DNA of 64,000 bases, taken from contig NZ_CP074149.1 of NCBI RefSeq assembly GCF_019968765.1, positions 2,666,001 through 2,730,000 on the forward strand, read 5' to 3'. The notes under the pieces were generated by a model, which saw only the letters and a list, made by a program, of their open reading frames with translations, was not told the origin of the DNA and did not search any database. This document shows positions 32,226-34,214 of this stretch, one piece after another. Position numbers and translations under genes: made by a program. How positions within the stretch are numbered: the stretch's first letter is position 1; every line of letters starts with the position of its first letter. The stretch is from Enterobacter sp. JBIWA008 (lineage in GTDB: Bacteria; Pseudomonadota; Gammaproteobacteria; Enterobacterales; Enterobacteriaceae).

Positions 32226-34214
32226 ATGGACGATCAGGGGCAGAATTTGCTGTTTCGCTACATGGGGACCCACAGTCCGTGGTGGCGCTTGTCAGCTGAC
32301 AGCAACGCTCTGCACCTTGCAGCCAGCGAAAATGCCGATGTCACTCAGGTGATTGCCCTGGAGGATGATCAGGCCGATCTCATCCGTCATTTAACCGTTA
32401 TTACCTCCAGCATTTCCATGTCGCTCTCCCTGTACGGGGAAGATGTTCCGGTCCATCTTGTGGGCCGTAAAATTACCCGTAACGAGTGGGCCGGAACCGC
32501 TTCCGCCTGGAACGATACGCCCTCCGTGGCGCGCGATCTGGCTCATGGGCTCTCTTTCGCGGAGCAGGTTGTCTCAGAGGCCAACTCCGTCATTGTTATT
32601 CTCGATCAGCACGGCAATATTCAGCGTTTTAATCGGCTTAGCGAAGAGTACACCGGCCTGAAAGAGCAAGAAGTAATTGGCCAGAACGTGTTTAAGCTGT
32701 TCATGAGCCGTAGCGAAGCAGCCGCTTCAAAGCGCAATATTACCGGTTTCTTTCGCAACGGCAGCTCCTACGAAGTCGAACGCTGGATCAAAACGCGTAA
32801 AGGGCAACGACTGTTTCTGTTCAGAAACAAATTTGTTCACAGCGGCAGCGGTAAAAATGAAATTTTCCTTATCTGTTCCGGAACCGATATTACCGAGGAA
32901 CGCCGCGCTCAGGAGCGGCTGCGCGTGCTGGCCAATACCGATACCATCACCGGCTTGCCAAACCGCAATGCGATCCACGATCTGATTTCTGACGCCATCG
33001 GCAACCGCGGCGACACGCAGGTGGGCGTGGTATATCTCGACCTGGATAATTTTAAAAAGGTCAACGATGCTTACGGTCATATGTTTGGCGATCAGCTGTT
33101 ACAGGCTGTCGCCCTCGCCATTTTGAGCTGTCTGGATGAGGGACAGGTGCTGGCGCGACTTGGCGGCGATGAGTTTATCGTCATGGCCACCAATACCTCT
33201 CAGGGCTCTCTGGAGGCAATGGCATCGCGCATTTTAACCCGTCTGCGCCAGCCGTTCAGAATCGGTCTGATTGAAATTTATACCGGTTGCTCACTGGGTA
33301 TCGCCCTCGCCCCGCAGCATGGGAACGACCGGGAAAGCGTGATTCGTAACGCCGATACCGCCATGTACACTGCCAAAGAGAACGGCCGGGGCAAGTTCTG
33401 CGTCTTCTCACCCGAGATGAACCAGCGCGTATTGGAGTATCTCTGGCTGGATACCAACCTGCGTAAGGCCCTGGATAACGATCAGCTTCTGATCCACTAT
33501 CAGCCGAAAATAACCTGGCGCGGGGAAGTCAGAAGCCTTGAAGCACTGGTCCGCTGGCAATCTCCAGAACGAGGATTGATCCCGCCGCTGGAGTTTATCT
33601 CTTATGCCGAGGAGTCGGGGTTGATTGTGCCGCTGGGCCGCTGGGTGATGCTGGACGTGGTTCGTCAGATTGCTAAATGGCGCGACAAGGGGATTAATCT
33701 GCGCGTGGCGGTGAACGTCTCAGCACGCCAGCTCGCCGACCAGACTATTTTCAGTGACTTAAAGCAGGCGCTGAAGGATCTGAATTTTGAATACTGCCCT
33801 GTCGACGTTGAATTAACCGAAAGCTGTCTTATCGAGAATGAAGAGTTGGCGCTGTCCGTGATCCAGCAATTCAGCCGGCTCGGGGCGCAAATTCATCTTT
33901 ATGATTTCGGCACCGGCTATTCTTCCCTCTCACAGCTGGCCCGTTTCCCTATCGACGCCATTAAACTCGATCAATCGTTTGTCAGGGATATTCATAAGCA
34001 ATCTATTTCACAGTCACTGGTGCGCGCTATCGTCGCGGTAGCGCAGGCGTTAAACCTGCAGGTGATTGCCGAAGGGGTCGAAAATGCGAAAGAAGACGCC
34101 TTTCTGACCAAGAACGGCGTCAACGAACGGCAGGGTTTTCTGTTTGCTAAGCCGATGCCCGCTGCCGCATTCGAGCGATGGCTAAAACGATATCAAGCGC
34201 GGAATCAACGTTAA
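32226..34214 (+). CDS. rpfR: RpfR (PdeR/Gmr), PAS-GGDEF-EAL DSF receptor, with altered EAL metal motif
   Basis: Cyclic-di-GMP enzyme of 662 residues, orthologous to E. coli PdeR (YciR) and to RpfR of Cronobacter and Burkholderia. Domains: N-terminal RpfF-interaction domain (1 to about 95), PAS domain that binds the fatty-acid signal (about 100-220), GGDEF with intact GGDEF at 313-317, EAL with Glu439 of EAL. The essential motif normally reading DDFGTG reads YDFGTG: Tyr559 (codon TAT, base 33900 is T where GAT would be Asp) replaces the first Asp, a metal ligand in this family. Other EAL residues (ELTES, IKLDQSF, AEGVEN) are present. Phosphodiesterase activity is therefore doubtful, while the cyclase site is intact. 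Start: ATG 32226 is seven bases after GGAG; ATG 32223 adjacent. It converges with rpfF, sharing four bases. Confidence 0.93.
   Translation: MDDQGQNLLFRYMGTHSPWWRLSADSNALHLAASENADVTQVIALEDDQADLIRHLTVITSSISMSLSLYGEDVPVHLVGRKITRNEWAGTASAWNDTPSVARDLAHGLSFAEQVVSEANSVIVILDQHGNIQRFNRLSEEYTGLKEQEVIGQNVFKLFMSRSEAAASKRNITGFFRNGSSYEVERWIKTRKGQRLFLFRNKFVHSGSGKNEIFLICSGTDITEERRAQERLRVLANTDTITGLPNRNAIHDLISDAIGNRGDTQVGVVYLDLDNFKKVNDAYGHMFGDQLLQAVALAILSCLDEGQVLARLGGDEFIVMATNTSQGSLEAMASRILTRLRQPFRIGLIEIYTGCSLGIALAPQHGNDRESVIRNADTAMYTAKENGRGKFCVFSPEMNQRVLEYLWLDTNLRKALDNDQLLIHYQPKITWRGEVRSLEALVRWQSPERGLIPPLEFISYAEESGLIVPLGRWVMLDVVRQIAKWRDKGINLRVAVNVSARQLADQTIFSDLKQALKDLNFEYCPVDVELTESCLIENEELALSVIQQFSRLGAQIHLYDFGTGYSSLSQLARFPIDAIKLDQSFVRDIHKQSISQSLVRAIVAVAQALNLQVIAEGVENAKEDAFLTKNGVNERQGFLFAKPMPAAAFERWLKRYQARNQR

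What the first reader, a model, noticed from the sequence alone, without database searches (positions are those of the whole stretch)
33900..33902. RpfR has lost the first Asp of its EAL metal motif (DDFGTG becomes YDFGTG)
The codon at 33900-33902 is TAT (Tyr559). In active EAL phosphodiesterases, including E. coli PdeR as I recall it, this position is Asp and binds a catalytic metal. All other EAL residues I can see and the GGDEF site are intact. A single G-to-T change would explain it. If real, the fatty-acid receptor could still make cyclic-di-GMP but not break it down, reversing its expected output or leaving it as a pure sensor.
Basis: partly seen in the sequence, partly recalled or inferred. 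Interest (0 to 1): 0.75.

Follow-up and report, generated by a model that had tools for sequence, protein, structure and literature searches.

The report
Phosphodiesterase-dead allele of RpfR receptor
In one Enterobacter genome the fatty-acid signal receptor RpfR has lost a metal-binding residue that the compared relatives keep, so it can probably still make the messenger cyclic-di-GMP but no longer break it down; damaging changes in this protein are already known, so the case is instructive rather than revolutionary.

Summary
All 138 other orthologous loci fetched, 126 of them distinct, encode Asp there. It is the only one of 191 otherwise invariant columns at which the window protein departs. 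A targeted search listed no other protein with Tyr here in its best 120. In EAL phosphodiesterases the matching Asp is a ligand of the M1 catalytic metal (PMC5301497). The nine other EAL site residues checked, the GGDEF motif, the invariant FI and PAS columns and the neighbouring synthase RpfF are intact. Best reading: a real, probably recent missense allele that abolishes c-di-GMP hydrolysis and leaves the cyclase. Published engineered relatives give two opposite outputs. RpfR-AAL of Burkholderia becomes a strong cyclase. An EAL-motif mutant of E. coli PdeR becomes a locked inhibitor of curli control. This genome has the E. coli-type partners (MlrA, DgcM, CsgD), so the sign of the output is undecided. 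Related lesions occur elsewhere (Asp to Asn in two backgrounds, Lys588Gln, frame breaks), but the excess over control phosphodiesterases is not significant. A sequencing error cannot be excluded without reads.

The parts
32202..34214 (+). rpfR (pdeR/yciR/gmr orthologue), FI-PAS-GGDEF-EAL protein, 670 aa; database forms are 663 aa, starting at residue 8
   Evidence: ORF; Pfam PAS, GGDEF, EAL; up to 98% identical to proteins named cyclic di-GMP phosphodiesterase [Enterobacter]
33900..33902 (+). TAT, Tyr567: stands where relatives have the first Asp of DDFGTG (M1 metal ligand in EAL phosphodiesterases)
   Evidence: Asp in 138 of 138 other loci; only departure at 191 invariant columns
33900..33917 (+). 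YDFGTG motif on the beta5-alpha5 loop
   Evidence: strand 160-163 of the modelled 266-aa EAL construct ends at the Tyr
33456..34154 (+). EAL domain (residues 419-651)
   Evidence: Pfam PF00563, 225.7 bits; AlphaFold2 mean pLDDT 90.7, about 74 in the block that holds the motif; Foldseek best matches BifA, MorA, MucR
33540..33542 (+). Glu447 of EAL, intact metal-ligand position
33714..33716 (+). Asn505, intact metal-ligand position
33810..33812 (+). Glu537 (ELTES), intact metal-ligand position
33903..33905 (+). Asp568, second Asp of the motif, intact
33963..33971 (+). Lys588 and Asp590 (KLD), intact
34071..34082 (+). Glu624 and Glu627, intact
34131..34133 (+). Gln644, intact
32931..33392 (+). 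GGDEF diguanylate cyclase domain (residues 244-397)
   Evidence: Pfam PF00990, 152.4 bits
33162..33176 (+). GGDEF motif, intact; no RxxD inhibitory site at the usual distance upstream, here or in 137 orthologous loci
32565..32894 (+). PAS domain (signal-binding), residues 122-231
   Evidence: match to solved RpfR chain 6dgg
32223..32507 (+). FI domain (RpfF interaction), residues 8-102
   Evidence: match to solved RpfR chain 6dga
34211..35080 (-). rpfF, DSF synthase (enoyl-CoA hydratase family), convergent with rpfR, intact
   Evidence: Pfam ECH_1; no departure at 104 columns invariant in the 121 of 138 loci with a near-full rpfF

Best explanation
A real, probably recent missense allele of rpfR in this Enterobacter lineage. 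Tyr in place of the first Asp of DDFGTG removes a side-chain ligand of the M1 catalytic metal and puts a bulky neutral ring in its place. The EAL domain folds but cannot activate the attacking water, so c-di-GMP hydrolysis is lost or nearly lost. The FI, PAS and GGDEF parts stay, so the receptor should still bind RpfF and the fatty acid. Shown here: the codon, its rarity, the intact rest. Inferred from family knowledge: loss of activity. Inferred with less certainty: the remaining cyclase, which lacks a canonical product-inhibition site, makes the protein a net c-di-GMP source, as for engineered RpfR-AAL of Burkholderia.
For: 138 of 138 other loci have Asp. It is the only departure at 191 invariant columns. 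Catalytic residues of two control phosphodiesterases of the same genus are intact in 58 of 59 loci (the exception is in G001, a 78%-complete genome) and in 41 of 41. PA3825 Asp160 is an M1 ligand (passages of PMC5301497). DDFGTG is called required for activity (passage of PMC7148300). RpfR-AAL makes c-di-GMP only, and cellular levels rise (passages of PMC9684580). The EAL model is confident overall and matches solved EAL domains; among them is 4rnf, titled a mutant phosphodiesterase of MorA, whose sequence reads NN in place of DD. No RxxD site in 138 of 138 loci, window included, where GGDEF was covered; one locus (L167) was not covered.
Against: No activity was measured for Tyr at this place, and residual activity cannot be ruled out. 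The discussion of PMC9684580 calls the cyclase activity of E. coli YciR weak, so net output may not be synthesis. No reads and no genome of the same species were available. The model is less certain at the motif itself (block mean pLDDT 74). The genome holds 29 EAL-family matches that could mask an effect.
Confidence: 0.6

Rival explanations
1. Trigger lock: the protein is dead as a phosphodiesterase and, as in E. coli PdeR, its main role is to hold DgcM and MlrA. Without hydrolysis it no longer lets go, so curli and CsgD are off. The output is the opposite of a gain in biofilm.
For: E. coli PdeR with an EAL point mutation is reported as a constitutive super-inhibitor of DgcM/MlrA (passage of PMC5052742). 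This genome has MlrA (78% identity), DgcM (69%) and CsgD (88%) orthologues. Natural E. coli PdeR E620K goes with curli loss in 8 soil strains, together with a dgcE frameshift that the authors think dominant (passages of PMC6029578).
Against: In B. cenocepacia the chromosomal AAL allele behaves like a null and wrinkles. In C. turicensis loss of rpfR raises c-di-GMP 3.9-fold (passage of PMC4698668). The interaction was not tested in Enterobacter.
Confidence: 0.22
2. Sequencing or assembly error: the organism has Asp and the T is a base-call mistake.
For: A single base at an otherwise invariant codon in one genome; no reads available; no other protein with Tyr here among the best 120 of a targeted search.
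Against: The assembly is nearly complete (5 contigs, chromosome 4,819,532 bases, completeness 100, contamination 0.05), and the gene shows no frameshift. Asn at the same residue is held by five database entries on 1 to 11 contigs each, in two sequence backgrounds, so replacement of this residue does occur.
Confidence: 0.1
3. Hypomorph or near-neutral change: activity falls but is enough, or is covered by the other phosphodiesterases of the cell.
For: 29 EAL-family matches in the genome; Asp568, Glu447, Asn505 and Glu537 are all present and could hold a metal.
Against: The residue is not replaced in any of 138 other loci; Tyr differs from Asp in charge and size, and a ligand of the M1 metal is lost (PMC5301497).
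Confidence: 0.08

Closest known systems
RpfR of Burkholderia cenocepacia / Cronobacter turicensis (BDSF receptor; passages of PMC9684580, PMC4698668, PMC6361424)
   Same: FI-PAS-GGDEF-EAL order, convergent rpfF next door, intact GGDEF
   Different: Wild-type RpfR has a working EAL site and net phosphodiesterase activity; here the first metal-ligand Asp is Tyr. The engineered AAL mutant is the nearest functional analogue
PdeR (YciR, Gmr) of Escherichia coli, trigger phosphodiesterase (passages of PMC5052742)
   Same: Orthologue; partners DgcM, MlrA and CsgD also present in this genome
   Different: E. coli keeps the first base of this Asp codon in about 5368 of 5371 records; E. coli lacks a DSF synthase (passage of PMC6361424)
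Natural E. coli YciR/PdeR variants (E620K; EAL-truncating nonsense allele; passages of PMC6029578, PMC10333796, PMC10459773)
   Same: Natural alleles that damage the EAL side of the same protein; the truncated form acts as an apparent cyclase
   Different: Different lesions; here a point change of a metal ligand in a full-length protein
Degenerate EAL receptors (LapD, FimX; passages of PMC3032553, PMC7148300)
   Same: EAL domain without competent metal site
   Different: LapD and FimX have several substitutions and degenerate GGDEF domains; here there is one change and GGDEF is intact

Membership tests
RpfR/PdeR orthologue | FI-PAS-GGDEF-EAL architecture and full-length identity to annotated members | tested here: met
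RpfR/PdeR orthologue | convergent rpfF gene adjacent (DSF system type) | tested here: met
   34211-35080 (-)
Active EAL phosphodiesterase | complete metal-ligand set E, N, E/D, first D, second D, D | tested here: not met
   first D is Tyr567; the others present
Active EAL phosphodiesterase | hydrolysis of c-di-GMP | not testable with these tools
   needs purified protein
Active GGDEF diguanylate cyclase | intact GGDEF motif | tested here: met
   33162-33176; GGDEF in 138 of 139 loci, window included; one locus not covered there
Active GGDEF diguanylate cyclase | GTP to c-di-GMP activity | not testable with these tools
   needs assay
Trigger phosphodiesterase (PdeR type) | partners DgcM and MlrA encoded in the genome | tested here: met
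Trigger phosphodiesterase (PdeR type) | physical inhibition of DgcM/MlrA relieved by c-di-GMP | not testable with these tools
   needs two-hybrid or reporter assay
Degenerate EAL receptor (LapD/FimX type) | EAL binds c-di-GMP without cleaving it and signals | not testable with these tools
   binding unknown

The most novel reading that the evidence does not exclude
Enterobacter isolates repeatedly disable the hydrolase half of RpfR while keeping the sensor and the cyclase. The fatty-acid receptor then changes from a c-di-GMP sink into a source or a locked regulator, and the first Asp of DDFGTG is a preferred target: Tyr in the window, Asn in two other backgrounds, with Asp568Glu, Gly572Glu and Lys588Gln as further members of the same series.
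Probability: 0.2. Interest if true: 0.6.

Novelty: new member of a known kind. Interest (0 to 1): 0.36.

Why it matters
RpfR links fatty-acid quorum sensing to c-di-GMP. Two well-studied relatives are reported to react in opposite ways to loss of hydrolysis: a cyclase-driven gain in B. cenocepacia, and a locked inhibitor with no curli in E. coli. A natural, probably hydrolase-dead allele in a genome that has both rpfF (as Burkholderia) and DgcM/MlrA (as E. coli) makes it directly testable which logic applies in Enterobacter. It also adds to the known theme that rpfR/yciR is a target of natural and laboratory adaptation.

Tried and rejected
The idea that Tyr marks a lineage or subfamily: rejected at genus scale, since 58 of 58 other genomes of the tool's genus that matched carry Asp (2 more did not match). 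That genus is broad: some of its contigs are ones named Lelliottia, Leclercia or Silvania. Inside the species the question is open.

The idea that the first Asp varies freely in this family: rejected, since there is no variation in 138 other loci, and all but about 3 of 5371 E. coli records are accounted for with the expected first base if the two allele classes do not overlap.

The idea of a DDFGTG mutation hotspot: weak. In the 120 proteins of the first search, 2 of 6 motif columns vary against 3 of 70 other invariant EAL columns (p 0.047). In 200 proteins it is 3 of 6 against 3 of 70 (p 0.005), but that set was enriched by a search seeded with an Asn-bearing protein. In all 296 it is 3 of 6 against 13 of 70 (p 0.10). 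I do not claim it.

The idea that rpfR is broken more often than other phosphodiesterases in the genus: not supported. Among 61 genomes, rpfR is unmatched in 2, broken or partial in 4 (G001, G019, G027, G054; G001 and G054 are 78 and 86% complete), and altered at a catalytic residue in 2 (window; G045 Lys588Gln). A control protein is unmatched or represented only by a paralogue in 2 and split or partial in 2; its catalytic residues are intact in 58 of 59 loci, and those of a paralogue in 41 of 41. Catalytic missense 2 of 59 against 0 of 99 intact control loci gives p 0.14, and against 1 of 100 p 0.56.

Three papers on RocR and YciR mutants (PMC2394985, PMC2715702, PMC3715855) were not held; I know them only by recall and through citing papers. 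A search for D295 led only to a page number.

Full report
What is there. The ORF 32202-34214 (+) encodes an RpfR/PdeR orthologue with FI, PAS, GGDEF and EAL parts. rpfF lies convergently at 34211-35080 (-). The codon at 33900-33902 is TAT.

Is it unusual? All 138 have Asp at this place, 90 as GAT and 48 as GAC. Twelve repeat another locus. The set runs from Enterobacter to Paraburkholderia. Of 660 columns, 191 do not vary among these loci where residues are present; the window departs at one only, residue 567. Of the seven nearest loci by DNA (93.8-94.8% over the gene, two of them the same genome), six carry GAT and the nearest GAC. For E. coli, 5371 records match pdeR. A 55-base query centred on the first base of this codon matched 4309 with the K-12-like allele. 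With the ST131 allele it matched 1909, of which 1059 at 95% or more. A megablast word must cover the central base, so about 5368 keep it, assuming that the 4309 and the 1059 do not overlap.

Does anybody else have Tyr? In a search drawn only from residues 541-600, a Tyr-bearing relative would be expected to rank first; none is in the best 120 of 7321. Over all 296 proteins listed in three searches the motif is DDFGTG in 289, NDFGTG in 5, DEFGTG in 1 and DDFGTE in 1. The database is clustered, so hidden members are possible: the nearest cluster P0001 stands for 1163 sequences. The five Asn entries fall in two backgrounds. P0042, P0083, P0121 and P0124 are P0047 with at most one other substitution. 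P0204 differs from P0047 at eight further residues and lacks the first Met. In G045 Lys588 is Gln.

What it does. In PA3825 the first Asp of DDFGTG (Asp160) coordinates M1 together with Glu39, Asn98 and Asp130, and the second (Asp161) coordinates M2; I read passages of PMC5301497. A passage of PMC7148300 says the motif is required. Entry 4rnf of MorA, titled a mutant phosphodiesterase, reads NN here in the alignment. AlphaFold2 gives a confident EAL barrel for the window's domain from 23 sequences (mean pLDDT 90.7; 74 in the block with the motif) that matches solved EAL domains (TM 0.87-0.90 for the top five). The Tyr sits at the end of the strand before the DDFGTG loop. So the fold is probably kept and the metal site damaged; this step is inference, not measurement.

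What remains. The GGDEF motif is intact. No RxxD inhibitory site stands at the usual distance in any of the 138 loci, window included, where this part was covered (one of 139 not covered). The window departs at no other invariant column, those in FI and PAS included. RpfF shows no departure at 104 columns invariant in the 121 of 138 loci with a near-full copy.

Which way does the output go? Passages of PMC9684580 report that purified RpfR-AAL makes c-di-GMP only, that its expression raises c-di-GMP strongly, that the chromosomal allele wrinkles like a null, and that YciR's own cyclase activity appears weak. A passage of PMC4698668 reports c-di-GMP 3.9-fold up without rpfR in Cronobacter. A passage of PMC5052742 reports that an EAL-motif mutant of E. 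[quoted passage not shown] This genome carries MlrA, DgcM and CsgD orthologues, so the E. coli logic is possible. I lean to a net cyclase but give the lock a real share.

Is it selected? rpfR/yciR is a known target of adaptation: B. cenocepacia biofilm lines (passages of PMC6121802), a cystic-fibrosis lineage of B. multivorans, there in the PAS domain (passages of PMC5069766), and natural E. coli variants (passages of PMC6029578, PMC10333796, PMC10459773). Here the numbers are small. Two of 59 rpfR loci of the tool's genus carry a catalytic missense against 1 of 100 control loci, the one in a 78%-complete genome; with or without that one the difference is not significant (p 0.56 and 0.14). The hotspot test does not survive the larger set.

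What is in print. Nine searches of the held open-access library (RpfR with EAL domain, DDFGTG, rpfR evolution, pdeR with Enterobacter, yciR within-host, EAL aspartate mutants, RpfF/RpfR with Enterobacter, E. hormaechei c-di-GMP adaptation, natural PdeR variants) listed no title or shown start of abstract about a natural loss of this Asp in RpfR. I read only passages, some lists were cut, and many journals are not held.

Verdict. The kind of event is known. What is open is the sign of the output, and whether this is one strain's lesion or a trend.

Noticed in passing
L161 (genome G045), 2730-2790: rpfR of another genome of the same tool-assigned genus has CAG (Gln) in place of Lys588 (IKLD reads IQLD), a second natural full-length copy that may be hydrolase-dead.
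   Followed up: partly
L166 (genome G019): rpfR is split into two frames near residue 332; the C-terminal piece is 99% identical to the window's and keeps Asp at 567.
   Followed up: partly
L165 (genome G027): rpfR is broken in the EAL domain: a stop inside the first piece and residues 495-544 not aligned; the DDFGTG Asp downstream are present.
   Followed up: partly
genomes G040 and G053: No rpfR match at E 1e-100 and no DgcM match at 1e-60. DgcM is unmatched in 10 of 61 genomes in all, six of them with a full rpfR, so joint loss is only a weak hint.
   Followed up: no
P0042, P0083, P0121, P0124, P0204 (protein database): Proteins with Asn at the same first Asp, in two backgrounds; named E. 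hormaechei (two), E. cloacae (one), unnamed (two).
   Followed up: partly
P0202 (24 contigs) and P0203 (1 contig), protein database: 419-aa entries that begin in the GGDEF domain, possibly rpfR alleles without FI and PAS.
   Followed up: no
G000:C4:44679-45383 (contig of 73,531 bases): An EAL phosphodiesterase gene beside what plasmid records annotate as a fimbrial chaperone gene; 3705 bases are identical on plasmids of E. asburiae and Enterobacter sp. 155105.
   Followed up: partly
G000:C2:13120-13803 (contig of 94,231 bases): A further EAL-family gene whose 3.7-kb surroundings have no match in the plasmid collection.
   Followed up: no
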